64,000 nt of DNA. It comes from Gilliamella bombicola (GTDB lineage Bacteria > Pseudomonadota > Gammaproteobacteria > Enterobacterales > Orbaceae). The notes under the pieces are model-generated. The model did no database searches. It worked only from the letters and a program-made list of their open reading frames with translations, and was not told where the DNA came from. Location of the stretch: positions 1-64,000 of the forward strand of contig NZ_FMAQ01000008.1 of the NCBI RefSeq assembly GCF_900094945.1, given 5' to 3'. A program made the position numbers and the translations under genes. Shown here piece by piece: positions 11,551 through 38,898 of the stretch (position 1 is its first letter; each line of letters begins with the position of its first letter).

Positions 11551-12114
11551 ATGGCTAATTTATTAACGCTATCGGAAATAAGTAATTATTTAAAAAATGG
11601 TGAAGTGATCGCTTACCCAACTGAAGCCGTTTTTGGTCTAGGTTGTGATCCGGATAGTGAATCAGCCGTATTAAAGTTACTACAACTAAAACAACGATCA
11701 ATAGATAAAGGTTTGATTTTAATTGCTAGTTGTTACCAACAACTAGTTCCTTATATAGATCAATCAGCCATTACCAATGAACAAAAACAGTTAGCACTTA
11801 CTAGCTGGCCTGGACCTGTTACTTGGGTTTTTCCTAAAAATAAAAATACGCCTTATTTTTTGACAGGTAAATTTGATTCTATTGCGGTACGCGTCACTAA
11901 TCATCCTTTAGTTTGCAAGCTTTGTGATCTTTATGGCAAACCGATTGTGTCAACTAGTGCTAATCTTTCTACTCATAATCCTTGCAAAACTGCCATCGAA
12001 GTCGCCAAACAATTTGGTCCATATTTCCCAATTTTAGCCGGTGACACAGGTCATCGATCACAACCATCGCAAATTAAAGACATCAAAACAGGGCAAATCA
12101 TTCGGCAAGGGTAA
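11551..12114 (+). CDS. tsaC: L-threonylcarbamoyladenylate synthase TsaC
   Basis: TsaC (YrdC/RimN) makes threonylcarbamoyl-AMP from threonine, bicarbonate and ATP for t6A. The YrdC fold is shown by [21 protein letters not shown] (17-37), [26 protein letters not shown] and [13 protein letters not shown]. The 187-residue length matches the short enterobacterial form without a C-terminal Sua5 extension. It ends 4 nt before the anmK start, so the two are probably translated from one message. Confidence 0.94.
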
Positions 12115-34662: not shown

Positions 34663-36192
34663 ATGTATTGTAATTACTCAACGTATCTTTTGGGTTATCA
34701 AAGTTGCAGTTATCAAAATTTCTCACGAGCTTTATTTTTACCTATGAATTTCGCGAAATTATTAGCATTCTTACTGACATCAATATTTTTATCACCTTTG
34801 TTATTACTTTCTTCATTTAGTGTACAGGCGTTATCGGTTTATACATCACAAACTATTGAAGGTTCTGCGCCGTATTTGACGTTTGATGGAGGCCGAACTA
34901 GGGTAACTTCAACCGAGAGTTTACTGGCTATTGAGTTGCCTGATGGTACTACCCTTACGCCATCAACTAATCCATCAAGTTCAACAAATCCAATAAGATT
35001 ACCTTATGCAGGAAGTACTTTGGGAGATATAGATATGTTAATCCCATCATCAGTGAATTCAGTGGATTTAAGTGATTTAGTCACTAGGTATAATTATTGG
35101 GGAGATGATGATGGAGATGGCCAAGGTTCAGGTGGTGTTACCGCATCAGGGAGTATATCGGTATCGTTTACGGATAAGGATAGTAATACAGTAAGTCGTA
35201 GTGATGCATTAGATAAATGTAAGGCTCCTTATAAGGTAACCTTAAGTAGTGTAGGGGGTTATTTACAAACACAGTACGGAGTTCCTAATAGGACTAGTTT
35301 TAGTGGAGCTATGGTGGATTATTATATTAATCCGTATGACAGTAGTCCTAGTGTTTGTTACGCAAGGCCTAATTTGTTGTTGGGTGGTACTACTGGCATC
35401 AATTCTAATGATGAACCTCGTTACGCAGGCCCAGCTAACATATGGTCTCCTACAAAGGGTTTTTTAACTCAGTCAAATGATTCATCATCTTACGGCCGAA
35501 ATTTTCCTACAACGGGTGCTAATGGGTTGTATTTTGATTTGCTCATAGGTGGCGTCGATGCAAGTCAGTTGACGTGGTCTCCGGTCACTCGTGGTGGAAT
35601 AACGGCTACGGTGACAAGTGTAATAGCTTATAATAATTGGCTTCCTAGTGTTGATAGAGGAAAAGTTGTCGCACGAGTTAAGTTAAGCGGTCCTAGGGCA
35701 ATTAGTACTCAAATAAACTCAAATAATCCTAGTCCGCTTACTCCGTTGCCATCTTTGCCGCAGACCTTTGAATTGGTGGGCAGGGATAGTCGTGGTAATG
35801 AGGTGAGGTATGGATTTGTGTTAAAGCAGTGGTTCGTCAATCGGGGTAGTAAACTCGATACTCAGTCCAACCAATCCACTTGGTGTAGTAGTTTGGGGTA
35901 TCGTCTTGCTAGTGTAAGTGATTTAACTAATGCAGTCAAAACAGATAGTCCTTCTATTTCTGGCGCCTTGCCATCCTCATCTGATAATTATTACATGCGT
36001 CACATAGGTGCTGGCTTTTTCACGGAGTGGGGCTACATGACCTACTCCGCTGATGCGGGCTTCGTCCCCGGCGCCATCGACTGGACAAGCGACACAACAG
36101 GTCGCAATGTCTTCAGTGTCAACTCAAACAACGGCCACGTCGGCAGCGGCTACGTTTACTACAGTGGTTACGCTGTTTGCACCGCACCTTAG
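34663..36192 (+). CDS. secreted adhesin-like protein with variable C-terminus (DUF823-type), paralogue 1
   Basis: I recognise this as resembling enterobacterial adhesion-domain (DUF823) proteins; function is inferred. The 509-residue product starts with an unusual 27-residue extension before a signal peptide (MNFAKLLAFLLTSIFLSPLL and on, ending VQALS). Its middle part has IEGSAPYLTFDGG, DDDGDGQG (Asp-rich, possibly calcium-binding) and GYLQTQYGVPNR. The C-terminal part (YGFVLKQWFVNRG, WCSSLGYR, GAGFFTEWG, WTSD) looks like a C-type-lectin-like fold. The start at 34663 has AAGGTGGG; ATG 34744 has none. GC is about 45-48% in parts I counted and 57% over the last 190 nt. About 34 of the last 53 codons end in C, unlike the body. 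Confidence 0.7.
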   Translation: MYCNYSTYLLGYQSCSYQNFSRALFLPMNFAKLLAFLLTSIFLSPLLLLSSFSVQALSVYTSQTIEGSAPYLTFDGGRTRVTSTESLLAIELPDGTTLTPSTNPSSSTNPIRLPYAGSTLGDIDMLIPSSVNSVDLSDLVTRYNYWGDDDGDGQGSGGVTASGSISVSFTDKDSNTVSRSDALDKCKAPYKVTLSSVGGYLQTQYGVPNRTSFSGAMVDYYINPYDSSPSVCYARPNLLLGGTTGINSNDEPRYAGPANIWSPTKGFLTQSNDSSSYGRNFPTTGANGLYFDLLIGGVDASQLTWSPVTRGGITATVTSVIAYNNWLPSVDRGKVVARVKLSGPRAISTQINSNNPSPLTPLPSLPQTFELVGRDSRGNEVRYGFVLKQWFVNRGSKLDTQSNQSTWCSSLGYRLASVSDLTNAVKTDSPSISGALPSSSDNYYMRHIGAGFFTEWGYMTYSADAGFVPGAIDWTSDTTGRNVFSVNSNNGHVGSGYVYYSGYAVCTAP

Positions 36193-36215
36193 CTTTTATA
36201 CCTTAGTCTTTGGAC

Positions 36216-36273
36216 CGCGGGGGCGGTTATGGTGCAGATAGAGGATAATTTATCAAAGAATAAAGCCCCCGCG
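36216..36273 (+). repeat. GC-rich inverted repeat downstream of adhesin 1
   Basis: CGCGGGGGC (36216-36224) and its exact complement (36265-36273) flank a 40-nt loop, starting 24 nt after the adhesin stop. No T-run follows. The same block, with shared GGTTATGGTGCA, follows adhesin 2 at 38432-38485. Confidence 0.65.
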
Positions 36274-36342
36274 TAAGTTGAGCATTTCCCTTAAGGTTAT
36301 GCTGTAGCGGTTTAAATTCGTGGTCTATTTATAGTACAGCAA

Positions 36343-36414
36343 GGTTTCGGACGTTTTAACTTTGGGTGAATAAAATAGCTATTGTGACCACCCAAGGTCA
36401 AAACGTCCGAAACC
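36343..36414. repeat. long inverted repeat, 26-nt arms
   Basis: The left arm starts GGTTTCGGACGTTTTAAC (36343-36368) and pairs with the right arm (36389-36414) at 24 of 26 positions across a 20-nt spacer. A sequence closely matching the complement of the left arm plus spacer recurs at 61869-61911 beside mobA, so this is a dispersed element, possibly a MITE or terminator-like repeat. Confidence 0.65.
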
Positions 36415-36477
36415 TGCGCACTTAATTTCTTCTATTCACCAAAACCCAAAAAAGACCTAATTTTCCGCCCAAAAATC

Positions 36478-36538
36478 AGTCAGAAAACATATTGATTTTA
36501 TTAAATTTTTTATACAGTGTTTTTTAGTCAAAAAACAC
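36478..36538 (+). repeat. structured repeat element, copy B
   Basis: AGTCAGAAAACATATTGATT followed by TTATTAAATTTTTTA matches copy A, then a perfect 9-bp hairpin (GTGTTTTTT, loop AGTC, AAAAAACAC). Block-to-hairpin spacing is 39 nt versus 38 nt in copy A. The rest of 36415-36735 is AT-rich and includes the shared ACAAAACTTTACAAAA (36590-36605). Confidence 0.7.
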
Positions 36539-36758
36539 CACCCAAAATCCTCCCCCAAAGCCCGCCAACGTATGTTGACTCAAGCTTTAACAAAACTTTA
36601 CAAAATTTTAACGGAAAAAGTAGCGCATTATTAACCAAGCGGCTATAATTTAAGGGCTTTCAAAGCAAAGGAGTGCTCGTTAGTCGAGCAGTTAGTTACA
36701 AAAAATGTAAATAAAACAAAAATTTACTTGACAGGATGATCGAAATGCGCTACCATTT

Positions 36759-38399
36759 ATGGCATCTGGCATCTGGCATCTGGCATGCCAAACCTACGCC
36801 CTAAATCTTTTTCAATTTCACCGTAGTCGAAATCAGACACAGTTCTTATTTTCATCACCGAAATTATCAAACTCATTGCGCTTGGCGAGGTCGTCGGGGT
36901 GTTCGTCGTGGTTAGGTTTTTTACTTAGCTCGCTTAGTTTTTCTAATTTTTCTATCTTACTTAAGTTACCAAGCTTACTTAGATCATTTAGCTTACCTAG
37001 ATTGTCGCTGTTCTTCGTGCTGTTGTTGTCATATACACAGAGTTCTGTGGCATTAACGGCGCATACATCAAGAGTAATTGAAGGTACTCTGCCGTATTTA
37101 ATGTTTGACGGTGGTTGGACAAAGGTAACAGATACAGACAGTTTATTGTTTATTAAGTTGCAGGATGGTCGGGTAATCACGCCATCTACTAATCCATCAA
37201 GTGTGACAAATCCGATAATTTTGCCGTATGTGGGGAGTAACTTAAGTCATATAGCAATGGTTGTTCCGTCGTCACAGAGTTCAATTAGTATAAATGATTT
37301 GGTTGTTCAGGGTAATTGGGGAGATGATGATGGGGATGGACAGGGAACAAATGGAGTTACCGCATCGGGGAATATATCGGTATCATTTACGGATAAGGAT
37401 GACAATACAGTTAATCGTAACGATGCATTAAGTATATGTAAGGCTCCTTATAGGGTAACTTTAAGTAGTTCAGGGGGATATTTACAAACACAGTACGGAG
37501 TTCCTAATAGGACCAATTTTAGTGGTCAGACGGTGACATATTATATCAATCCGTATGGTGGTCCTGTTGTTTGTCACACAAGGCCAAATCTTAGTTATGG
37601 CACAGACGATTTCACCGGCCCATCTAACATATGGTCTCTTACAAAGGGTTTTTTAAGTCAGTCAAATGATTCATTATCTTACGACCAAAACTTTCCAACT
37701 ACAGGTGCCGATGGATTGTATTTTGATTTGCTCATAGGTGGAGTGGATGGAAGTCAATTGACATGGTCTCCGGTCACGCGTGGTGGAATAACGGCTACGG
37801 TGACAAGTGTAGCAGCTAATGATAGGTGGATTCCTGGTGTTGATAAAGAAAAAGTTGTCGCACGGGTAACGTTAAGCGGTCCTAGGGCTGATAGTACTCA
37901 GATAGGGTCAGATAATCCTAGTCCGCTTACTCCATTGCCATCTTTGCCACAGACATTTGAGTTGGTGGGTAGGGATAGTAGGGATAATGTGGTGGTTAAA
38001 TATGGATTTGTGTTGAAGCAGTGGTTCGTCCATCGGGGTAATAAAGACGCTAGTCAGTCTGACCAAATATCTTGGTGCAATCGTTTGGGTTATCGTGCGC
38101 CACAGGTTAAGGATTTAACTAATGCGGTTTGTTCTGGTTGGCATTCAGGATTTTGGTGTCGAGGCGCAGTAGGTGCCACGCCGTCGTCTAGTAATAATCA
38201 TTACAAGCGTCACATAGGTGCTGGGTTTTTTACGGAGTGGGGCATCCTTTACCACTACGCTGATGCGGGTTTTGTCGACAACATCTACTGGACGAGCGAC
38301 GCTTCAGGTAGCAATAGCTTCACTGTCGCTTGGGACCTCGGCGACATTAACAGCTTCAGTGCCGGTTACAGCCTTTATGGCCTTTGTACCACACCTTAG
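36759..38399 (+). CDS. secreted adhesin-like protein with variable C-terminus (DUF823-type), paralogue 2
   Basis: A paralogue of the 34663-36192 product, closely similar from IEG.LPYL.FDGG to GAGFFTEWG, with the same DDDGDGQG, GYLQTQYGVPNR and YGFVLKQWFV blocks. Here a Cys-containing insert (CSGWHSGFWC) lies before the tail, and the last about 50 residues differ strongly at positions mostly encoded by codons ending in C or T. The ATG at 36759 lies inside a heptamer repeat and has no ribosome site; the better-served ATG at 36745 is out of frame. The first 95 residues are odd: a Ser/Leu-rich periodic stretch before a signal peptide core (LSLFFVLLLSYTQSSVA). The true start is uncertain and expression may be switched. 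Confidence 0.65.
   Translation: MASGIWHLACQTYALNLFQFHRSRNQTQFLFSSPKLSNSLRLARSSGCSSWLGFLLSSLSFSNFSILLKLPSLLRSFSLPRLSLFFVLLLSYTQSSVALTAHTSRVIEGTLPYLMFDGGWTKVTDTDSLLFIKLQDGRVITPSTNPSSVTNPIILPYVGSNLSHIAMVVPSSQSSISINDLVVQGNWGDDDGDGQGTNGVTASGNISVSFTDKDDNTVNRNDALSICKAPYRVTLSSSGGYLQTQYGVPNRTNFSGQTVTYYINPYGGPVVCHTRPNLSYGTDDFTGPSNIWSLTKGFLSQSNDSLSYDQNFPTTGADGLYFDLLIGGVDGSQLTWSPVTRGGITATVTSVAANDRWIPGVDKEKVVARVTLSGPRADSTQIGSDNPSPLTPLPSLPQTFELVGRDSRDNVVVKYGFVLKQWFVHRGNKDASQSDQISWCNRLGYRAPQVKDLTNAVCSGWHSGFWCRGAVGATPSSSNNHYKRHIGAGFFTEWGILYHYADAGFVDNIYWTSDASGSNSFTVAWDLGDINSFSAGYSLYGLCTTP
36761..36786 (+). repeat. 7-bp tandem repeat (GGCATCT) at the start of adhesin 2
   Basis: Three full GGCATCT units plus a partial fourth overlap the start codon of adhesin 2. 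An upstream ATG at 36745 (and an in-frame one at 36736), with AGGA 8 nt before 36745, is out of frame and stops after 19 codons at 36802. One extra unit, or two fewer, would fuse it to the adhesin frame. This is the layout of a slipped-strand phase switch, although the tract is short. Confidence 0.6.
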
Positions 38400-38898
38400 C
38401 TTTTATATCTTAGTCCTTAATCCTTGGGCCGCGGGGGTGGTTATGGTGCAAATAGAGAATAATCTAACAAACAACAGCGCCCCCGTACTGTGAAGCGCCG
38501 AGTTAATAAGATTGGGAGTGAATATAAAACAAATAAGAATAACCAAGCAGTTGGTGGATAAGTGTTTGTTGTGTACTTTGAAATAGTGGTGTTAGTTTAA
38601 CGAATGGAATCAATTAAATACTTGGCATAATATGCCTAACAGTAAAATTAGCACTACTAGCACAGCACTTATTCATCACCCAAGACTTTCAACCTAAAAT
38701 TGTCATGCAAGCTTGCTGATAAAAGGGAAGAAAGTTAGGGGGATATGGCTAAATCAGCGACATACGCATCTTAGGTTGCAACTTCCCGACTGGGGTGCGA
38801 ATGATTTTTGATTTTAGTTATACACCAACTGACTTGGCCCTCAAAACAAAGTTAAAAGATAACCATACGGCAATCCATAAAAAAACATAGTAAAAATC
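38400..38898. other. region after adhesin 2, with GC-rich inverted repeat
   Basis: Downstream of the stop, CGGGGG (38432-38437) pairs with CCCCCG (38480-38485) around GGTTATGGTGCA, matching the element after adhesin 1. The remaining stretch to 38898 has no supported ORF, tRNA or known RNA. Its GC is mixed and it may hold decayed adhesin-type sequence. Confidence 0.5.

What the first reader, a model, noticed from the sequence alone, without database searches (positions are those of the whole stretch)
34663..38399. Tandem adhesin paralogues with GC-rich, NNC-codon hypervariable C-termini
The two secreted proteins are alike up to GAGFFTEWG and then diverge sharply over about 50 residues while keeping a scaffold (ADAGFV, WTSD, G.N.F, C at the end). 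In this tail 34 of 53 codons (gene 1) and 28 of 52 (gene 2) end in C by my count, and most differences are at codon positions 1-2 of NNC/NNT codons (for example TAC/ATC, GTC/AGC, AAC/CTC). The last 190 nt of gene 1 are 57% GC in an AT-rich genome. This resembles the variable regions of C-type-lectin proteins diversified by retroelements, or of cassette-recombined adhesins. No reverse transcriptase or template repeat is visible in this window, so the mechanism is open.
Basis: partly seen in the sequence, partly recalled or inferred. Interest (0 to 1): 0.82.

Follow-up and report, generated by a model that had tools for sequence, protein, structure and literature searches.

The report
Retroelement-rewritten adhesin-like tails in Gilliamella
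A bee-gut bacterium carries one mutation-making retroelement whose single template has rewritten the tips of more than twenty scattered secreted-protein genes, two of which lie in this window, and many of those genes also carry a short DNA repeat that may switch them on and off.

Summary
The tails of both window genes are variable regions (VRs) of a diversity-generating retroelement (DGR). Its parts lie on another contig of the same Gilliamella genome: a DGR-type reverse transcriptase (RT), an Avd-like protein and an A-rich template repeat (TR). Over 28 tails, 509 of 1,073 template adenines differ against 404 of 2,087 other bases; in gene bodies the contrast is slight (0.31 against 0.25). Of 40 target tails, 28 align to the TR core, 23 with p below 0.05 and 14 after correction. 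This is more A-biased dispersed target genes per template than in the counts I saw, apart from repeat-rich cases that one survey mentions.

In another species (G023) RT and Avd are gone and about 47 nt of TR remain. The 19 tails read there (of 41 matches) follow that remnant, not this genome's TR: one template rewrites many genes, species by species. RT occurs in 3 of 35 Gilliamella genomes (one full-length), the target family in 30.

Unexpectedly, 23 of 28 anchored target starts carry heptanucleotide arrays; in 22 the conserved ATG is out of frame: candidate phase variation. The fold is only weakly intimin/invasin-like; present activity is untested.

The parts
34663..36192 (+). Target gene 1: secreted adhesin-like protein (509 aa), no heptanucleotide array at its start
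   Evidence: matches of 36-76% identity elsewhere in the genome
36031..36189 (+). Variable region (VR) of gene 1, homologous to the TR at about G000:C19:151489-151659(-)
   Evidence: A 13/37, non-A 7/73 mismatches to the TR core, p 1.6e-3
36215..36273 (+). GC-rich inverted repeat downstream of VR 1 (GCGGGGGC...GCCCCCGC), seen by eye behind many other VRs of this genome; terminator or DGR hairpin
   Evidence: function not tested
36745..36804 (+). Conserved Shine-Dalgarno-preceded ATG of the target family; in gene 2 its frame stops after 19 codons (out of frame with the body by 2)
36760..36786 (+). Heptanucleotide array (TGGCATC)x3.9 at the start of gene 2, candidate phase-variation tract
36759..38399 (+). 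Target gene 2: secreted adhesin-like protein; 546 aa if translation begins at the second ATG (36759)
38241..38396 (+). VR of gene 2
   Evidence: A 19/44, non-A 11/82 mismatches to the TR core, p 2.7e-4
38429..38486 (+). GC-rich inverted repeat downstream of VR 2
   Evidence: function not tested

Best explanation
The two tails are VRs of one 'inverted-type' diversity-generating retroelement that acts in trans on a multigene family. SHOWN by sequence: the genome (Gilliamella) has a DGR-type RT (G000:C19:150242-151465 +), an Avd-like gene (149831-150247 -) and a TR (about 151489-151659 -). The TR lies on the strand opposite the RT, inside a unit bracketed by a 17-nt inverted repeat. Tails of many dispersed paralogues are copies of this TR, changed mainly at its adenines. 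In G023 the tails read follow that species' own TR version. INFERRED: TR RNA is reverse-transcribed with errors at adenines by RT plus Avd, and the mutated cDNA replaces VRs in many genes, randomising mainly the 15 AAC/AAT codons of a ligand-binding tip. RT or TR has been lost repeatedly in the genus, after which tails drift by ordinary mutation. A second layer, heptanucleotide slippage at the start codon, may switch individual copies on or off, so that many copies may be a silent, diversified reserve. Ligands and benefit (host mucosa, phages or other bacteria) are unknown.
For: RT: the only RT_1 hit in the genome; motifs IPIGSASSQ and YMDD; PHROG RT E 3e-81 and 'Avd protein of DGR' E 2e-8; NCBIfam Avd E 1e-4, below that model's cut-off; best PDB sequence match 8ub7 (that it is the Bordetella phage DGR RT is recalled). 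TR-VR; pooled A 47% against non-A 19%, p 3e-59; changes go to all three bases (G 232, T 158, C 119); the best VR (C24) has a 69-nt stretch with 12 A changes and no other. Body control: A 0.31, non-A 0.25. Species-specific concerted change: at six sites where the G000 and G023 TRs differ, 16-19 of 19 G023 VRs carry the G023 base and 15-19 of 22 G000 VRs the G000 base; G023 VRs against their own TR remnant over 31 nt A 72/171, non-A 21/418 (p 2e-26). Two of the three nearest RT relatives in the order (45-46%) have TR and VR on the strand opposite the RT with textbook pairs: A 19/43 against non-A 2/96, and A 18/42 against non-A 0/96. Heptamer arrays.
Against: No VR in this genome is a clean copy: the best has 3 of 77 non-A changes and the pooled rate is 19%, mostly transitions, so activity here is old, slow or stopped. 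Five of 28 aligned tails show no significant A bias, and 13 of 41 did not reach the alignment threshold. Some non-A columns near the TR's 3' end also vary, and several template adenines are conserved. Some VRs have indels relative to the TR. RT models of other classes, such as group II intron RT, also match this RT, all below their cut-offs. Retrohoming was not observed and no strain series of this species was available. The fold model is poor (mean pLDDT 46, VR part below 30). In 15 of the 22 copies whose first ATG is out of frame there is a second, in-frame ATG (11) or TTG (4) 14 nt on, so OFF is not certain for gene 2.
Confidence: 0.93

Rival explanations
1. The DGR of this genome is dead or nearly so. 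The tails are fossils of past mutagenesis that now evolve by point mutation and recombination.
For: Non-A mismatches 404/2087, mostly transitions. RT in 3 of 35 genus genomes: it ends at a transposase-like ORF (IS3-type by eye) in Choc5-1 and is truncated in Pas-s25. G023 keeps only the start of a TR. Tails of G030 and G032 have lost most of the C3 signature.
Against: RT (408 aa, catalytic motif), Avd and TR look intact in this genome. One VR has a 69-nt stretch with A changes only.
Confidence: 0.4
2. Tails are spread among paralogues by homologous gene conversion or cassette recombination rather than by reverse transcription.
For: A large family of paralogues with similar 3' flanks. Conversion may well add to the pattern and to the indels.
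Against: Conversion does not make changes fall on adenines of a repeat beside an RT, nor NNC codons with every base at positions 1-2.
Confidence: 0.03
3. Ordinary positive selection at binding residues, without a retroelement.
For: Variable positions lie between conserved scaffold residues; the bodies also diverge. Of two third-position template adenines, one (ACA) is changed in only 3 of 22 VRs.
Against: The other synonymous template A (codon GCA, position 63) is changed in 12 of 22. In gene bodies A and non-A differ little. A species-specific template exists.
Confidence: 0.02
4. The heptanucleotide arrays are not phase-variation switches but a fixed feature; translation begins at the second ATG, or at another start, in most copies.
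For: Array length is nearly constant within G000 (3.4-3.9 units in 22 of 23) and G023 (3.3-3.7 in 16 of 18). Short arrays slip rarely. Fifteen of the 22 G000 copies have an in-frame ATG or TTG 14 nt downstream.
Against: Seven G000 copies have no in-frame ATG, GTG or TTG until 30 or more codons past the anchor. One of 18 G023 copies and G027's L084 have one more unit, which restores the frame of the conserved ATG. Long arrays (11.6, 12.7, 15.3 units) occur with other unit sequences but again period 7.
Confidence: 0.4

Closest known systems
Inverted-type DGRs (Shewanella, Vibrio, Photobacterium; PMC3521204, section 15 read)
   Same: RT on one strand, TR, VR and target on the other; repeats of 130-139 nt; A-specific changes
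   Different: Here dozens of dispersed targets; a target in cis is only inferred beyond the contig end. A 17-nt inverted repeat brackets the TR unit (whether theirs have one was not looked at).
Treponema denticola DGR (PMC4891356, passages seen)
   Same: One RT and TR with several remote surface-protein targets; complete system in 9 of 17 strains while targets persist in others
   Different: 2-7 targets there against 40 tails here (28 alignable); loss is seen here between species, with a TR remnant and species-specific TR versions; heptanucleotide arrays at target starts
Trichodesmium and other cyanobacterial DGRs with remote VPs (PMC7517822 section 6; PMC8867640 passages)
   Same: Trans-acting DGR, dispersed CLec paralogues
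   Different: 18 loci with TR/VR homology and two DGR RTs in T. erythraeum; often fused regulatory domains rather than one secreted family
Thiohalocapsa PB-PSB1 DGRs (PMC10907252, passages)
   Same: Cellular DGRs, multiple targets, trans action proposed
   Different: 15 targets over nine loci; conflict-system sensors
'Highly repetitive TR' cases (PMC6642488, section 13 read)
   Same: The authors state that a single TR can have a dozen or even hundreds of VR copies
   Different: Their detailed example (Pseudomonas costantinii, 91 TR-VR pairs) has few A-to-N changes and its 21 merged VRs lie in one ORF; the others named were not examined here
Heptanucleotide SSR loci of Haemophilus influenzae (hmw1A/hmw2A, HI1369; PMC2651432, passages)
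   Same: Period-7 arrays on surface-protein genes proposed to mediate phase variation
   Different: There mostly upstream of single genes. Here just after the start codon of many members of a DGR-target family.
Intimin / invasin C-terminal domains (PDB 2zqk, 1f00, 1cwv)
   Same: Weak structural match to C-terminal fragments, 18-19% identity over 123-140 residues

Membership tests
Diversity-generating retroelement | RT of the DGR lineage with the SQ motif | tested here: met
   IPIGSASSQ and YMDD; PHROG RT family E 3e-81; PDB 8ub7 best; two of three relatives at 45-46% sit in textbook DGRs. No RT tree was built.
Diversity-generating retroelement | Template repeat near the RT, homologous to variable regions | tested here: met
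   About C19:151489-151659(-), beginning some 20 nt past the RT stop codon
Diversity-generating retroelement | TR-VR differences concentrated at TR adenines, to all bases | tested here: met
   509/1073 A against 404/2087 non-A over 28 VRs; body control 0.31 against 0.25
Diversity-generating retroelement | Accessory protein such as Avd | tested here: met
   PHROG 'Avd protein of DGR' E 2e-8; NCBIfam Avd E 1e-4 but below its cut-off; no Pfam family over its cut-off
Diversity-generating retroelement | VR at the 3' end of the target, in a C-type-lectin-like domain | tested here: inconclusive
   3' position met. Fold model poor, weak intimin/invasin matches.
Diversity-generating retroelement | IMH and hairpin downstream of the VR (recalled as known from Bordetella phage) | tested here: inconclusive
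   VR end differs from TR end, and a GC-rich inverted repeat recurs downstream, judged by eye; function untested
Diversity-generating retroelement | Observed mutagenic retrohoming | not testable with these tools
   Needs culture or population sequencing
Inverted-type DGR | RT on the strand opposite the TR | tested here: met
   RT +, TR -; same in G147 and G086
SSR phase-variable (contingency) locus | Tandem array of non-triplet unit at the coding start, with frame dependence | tested here: met
   23 of 28 anchored G000 starts, 18 of 20 G023 starts; period 7
SSR phase-variable (contingency) locus | Array-length variation changes expression | tested here: inconclusive
   Copies with one more unit are in frame (L084, L257). 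These are different genes, not alleles; no expression data.
Intimin/invasin-type adhesin | Ig-like plus C-terminal lectin-like module | tested here: inconclusive

The most novel reading that the evidence does not exclude
A two-tier repertoire system. One DGR in trans keeps rewriting an archive of roughly 20-40 surface-protein genes, most held silent by an out-of-frame heptanucleotide array, and slippage by one unit switches on one or a few diversified variants at a time. The TR itself evolves, and each new TR version is broadcast to the whole family. When RT or TR is lost, the repertoire freezes. This would resemble a bacterial counterpart of a germ-line library with stochastic expression, in a host-restricted gut symbiont.
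Probability: 0.35. Interest if true: 0.92.

Novelty: new variant of a known kind. Interest (0 to 1): 0.8.

Why it matters
No paper in the searched open library holds both 'Gilliamella' and 'diversity-generating retroelement'. The number of A-biased dispersed target genes for one TR is above the counts I saw (7; 18 with two RTs; 15 over nine loci), with the repeat-rich cases of PMC6642488 as the exception I could not examine. Two species with different TR versions show that one template rewrites many genes. A genus with stages from full-length through interrupted and mostly deleted to decayed gives a time series of DGR loss. If the heptamer arrays switch these genes, targeted hypermutation and phase variation would act on the same genes; a library search on DGR, phase variation and SSR terms (206 papers with two of three terms, 8 listed) showed both DGR and phase variation only in two general reviews among those listed. 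Gilliamella can be cultured (recalled), so function is testable.

Tried and rejected
Pfam, NCBIfam and PDB sequence searches with the targets gave nothing. In viral contigs, scans with six peptide patterns each found no relative of target or RT; phage records hold RT relatives, 105 of them, all under 60% identity and 28-35% in the 20 listed. No Rfam match in the DGR locus; the promoter scan is below shuffled expectation (2 found, 9.4 expected). Looking for recently duplicated target pairs to prove current activity failed: the closest bodies differ by 12%. Other RTs in Gilliamella genomes are not this RT. Gene conversion alone and positive selection alone were rejected (see rivals). The fold of the VR domain alone could not be predicted: the second structure job was never accepted. 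Wu et al. 2018 on DGR classification is not held (recalled only). No RT tree was built. Foldseek found nothing at E 0.001 or better; intimin/invasin is only a weak match. Against the G000 TR, G023 tails look only weakly A-biased (11 of 19 with p below 0.05); the bias is clear only against their own remnant.

Rows dropped: from 55 open-frame rows 41 tails were kept (duplicates and pieces without the tail dropped); one of the 41 (second L069 entry) is an N-terminal piece kept by mistake, so 40 tails. Of 41, 28 reached the alignment threshold and 22 the stricter one, whose script stopped with an error after the last column that held data, so its class means were not printed. One search failed and was rewritten. 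In one search, L174 and L179 gave no tail; L174 is the TR remnant. In one search one of 29 loci (L089) gave no row. A translation line was one base off; one search gives the right one.
Full report
WHAT WAS CHECKED. C-ending codons make up 33 of 52 and 27 of 51 of the tails against about 10% of the bodies; the highest value in 14,599 other 53-codon stretches of open frames in the window is 16. The window is G000:C10:1-64000 of a 2.32-Mb, 29-contig genome. RT matches of 97% (residues 1-274) and 83% (residues 1-117) to records titled Gilliamella sp. Choc5-1 and Pas-s25 place it in Gilliamella (that this is a bee-gut genus is recalled).

THE RETROELEMENT. The genome has one RT_1 match, at C19:150416-151108. 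The ORF gives a 408-aa RT with IPIGSASSQ and YMDD. It matches the PHROG RT family (E 3e-81) and, best among solved structures, 8ub7 (recalled to be the Bordetella phage DGR RT). Models of other RT classes match too, below their cut-offs. Divergent from it, starting in a shared ATGCAT palindrome (sequence), is a 139-aa protein matching 'Avd protein of DGR' (PHROG E 2e-8; NCBIfam E 1e-4, below that model's cut-off). The tail of gene 1 used as a DNA probe hits 32 places in the genome, one of them just behind the RT gene on the opposite strand. This stretch, the TR, reads AAC or AAT in 15 of 50 codons.

THE TEST. Of 41 tails, 28 could be aligned to a 126-nt TR core. Adenines differ in 509 of 1,073 cells (to G 232, T 158, C 119), other bases in 404 of 2,087 (mostly transitions); Fisher p 3e-59 (cells are not independent, so this is a guide). 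Singly, 23 of 28 have p below 0.05 and 14 pass 0.05/41. Gene 1: A 13/37, non-A 7/73. Gene 2: A 19/44, non-A 11/82. The best, at C24, has A 17/41, non-A 3/77, with 69 nt carrying 12 changes at A and none elsewhere. Five tails show no significant bias and 13 did not align well enough. Control: in gene bodies of 22 targets A differs in 0.31 and other bases in 0.25 of cells. Column by column (22 VRs) the highest entropies are mostly at template adenines, but several adenines are conserved and a few non-A columns near the 3' end vary. Of two third-position adenines one is changed in 12 of 22 VRs, the other in 3 of 22.

ONE TEMPLATE, MANY GENES, SPECIES BY SPECIES. The target family has 47 protein matches in this genome (some are pieces of one gene or contig-end fragments) and occurs at E 1e-20 in 30 of 35 Gilliamella genomes. 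RT (E 1e-20) and Avd occur in 3 of 35. In Choc5-1 the RT frame ends at a transposase-like ORF (IS3-type by eye) at a contig end. In Pas-s25 it is truncated, and a target tail lies where the TR would be. TR-like DNA is found in 6 of 35 genomes. The leader part of a TR-leader probe matches, besides this genome, only G023 (85% over 244 nt; other genomes match only the TR start, as VRs would). In G023 the leader and about 47 nt of TR remain, then unrelated sequence and tRNA-Ser, without RT or Avd. I read 19 of G023's 41 targets (those listed first by similarity to gene 1, plus the stretch with the remnant). Pooled, they match the remnant: over 31 nt A 72/171, non-A 21/418, against non-A 108/418 to the G000 TR. 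G000 tails prefer the G000 TR (non-A 66/484 against 139/484). At the six sites where the two TRs differ, 16-19 of 19 and 15-19 of 22 tails carry their own genome's base. Dispersed genes have thus been rewritten from one template, separately in each species. Tails from seven further genomes were sampled. Against the G000 TR, A bias with p below 0.05 is seen in 6 of 10 tails of G010, 2 of 3 of G027, 4 of 4 of G017 and 2 of 2 of G033 (partly chosen because they hit the TR). In G030 (10 tails) and G032 (5) the C-ending fraction is 0.13-0.32, in G026 (5) 0.34-0.50, against 0.45-0.69 in G023, 0.08-0.63 in the 28 aligned G000 tails, and 0.07-0.21 upstream of the G030, G026 and G032 tails. I read this as stages of decay after loss.

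CASSETTE ANATOMY. TR and leader are bracketed by a 17-nt inverted repeat (L002:11466-11482 and 11826-11842), overlapping the RT stop codon. On the TR strand the unit folds better than all 100 shuffles (z -3.4). Upstream on the same strand lies a 171-aa ORF near the contig end. Relatives of it are found in 13 of 35 Gilliamella genomes, this one included, some beside target genes (for example G026:C1:1291008 next to the target at 1291695). In the order, 7 of 394 genomes have an RT match at E 1e-25. G147 shows target - 163-aa ORF - TR - inverted RT - Avd-like ORF, G086 a TR-VR pair on the same side: A 19/43 with non-A 2/96, and A 18/42 with non-A 0/96. In G254 an RT, an Avd-like ORF and a 163-aa ORF were seen but no VR in the stretch held. 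G146 was not examined. Likeness of these Avd-like and 163/171-aa ORFs to ours was judged by eye. Inverted DGRs are a described type (PMC3521204 section 15, read).

A SECOND LAYER. Gene 2 starts in a TGGCATC array of 3.9 units (36760-36786), the only exact period-7 array of 21 nt or more in the window; one other was found in 50 kb of four related loci, also near a target start. Of 28 distinct target starts in this genome that could be anchored (gene 1 is not among them and has no array), 23 have such an array. In 22 (3.4-3.9 units) the conserved ATG is out of frame by the same offset, and in one (11.6 units) it is in frame. Seven of the 22 have no in-frame ATG, GTG or TTG until 30 or more codons past the anchor; the other 15 have an in-frame ATG (11) or TTG (4) 14 nt downstream, so OFF is uncertain there, gene 2 included. 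In G023, 18 of 20 starts have arrays (one of only 2.3 units): 17 out of frame, one with an extra unit in frame. Among 29 loci from other genomes, 12 have arrays of 22-107 nt with differing units, period 7 (which looked only for period 7). This looks like contingency loci, as in Haemophilus (PMC2651432, passages). That arrays change in life is not shown, and uniform short arrays argue for slow slippage.

LITERATURE. Searches with Gilliamella and DGR terms found no paper. Counts seen: T. denticola 2-7 targets (PMC4891356, passages); Trichodesmium 18 loci with two DGR RTs (PMC8867640, passages); Thiohalocapsa 15 targets in nine loci (PMC10907252, passages). PMC6642488 (section 13) states that a single TR can have a dozen or even hundreds of VR copies; its detailed case has 91 TR-VR pairs with few A-to-N changes and 21 merged VRs in one giant adhesin ORF, and two further named genomes were not examined. 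The library holds only open papers, so no claim of a record is made.

VERDICT. The finding is real and correctly guessed: a DGR of a known inverted type, unusual in the number of remote targets, in its species-wide rewriting and in its pairing with heptanucleotide arrays. Whether it is active now, and what the proteins bind, is open.

Noticed in passing
window 36760-36786; L032; L084; L088; L108; L250-L269: Heptanucleotide tandem arrays at the starts of DGR target genes across Gilliamella, with unit sequences that differ between species but period 7, placing the conserved ATG in or out of frame.
   Followed up: partly
L002:11839-12354 (-), L270:3073-3564 (-), L271:3067-3558 (-): A 163-171 aa ORF (ours without Pfam match) sits on the TR side of three DGR loci of the order, and relatives lie beside target genes in other Gilliamella genomes: possible unrecognised DGR accessory gene.
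   Followed up: partly
L002:11466-11842: 17-nt inverted repeat closes a 377-nt unit with leader and TR (fold z -3.4); leader conserved in G023, no Rfam match.
   Followed up: partly
L002:10243-10248: RT and Avd start codons overlap head to head in the palindrome ATGCAT, leaving no intergenic space for promoters.
   Followed up: no
window 36340-36420, and downstream of targets L010 and L023: A dispersed element with inverted ends (AAGGTTTCGGACGTTTT...) lies behind several target genes, MITE- or REP-like by eye.
   Followed up: no
G022:C35:275237-277209 and G011:C1:609470-611279: Pairs of adjacent RT matches, perhaps DRT3-type defence systems.
   Followed up: no
L216:811-5300 (G023); L002:57-2866: The TR remnant lies between an mcrBC-like pair and tRNA-Ser; an McrBC-like pair (by eye) also lies about 7 kb from the DGR in this genome.
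   Followed up: no
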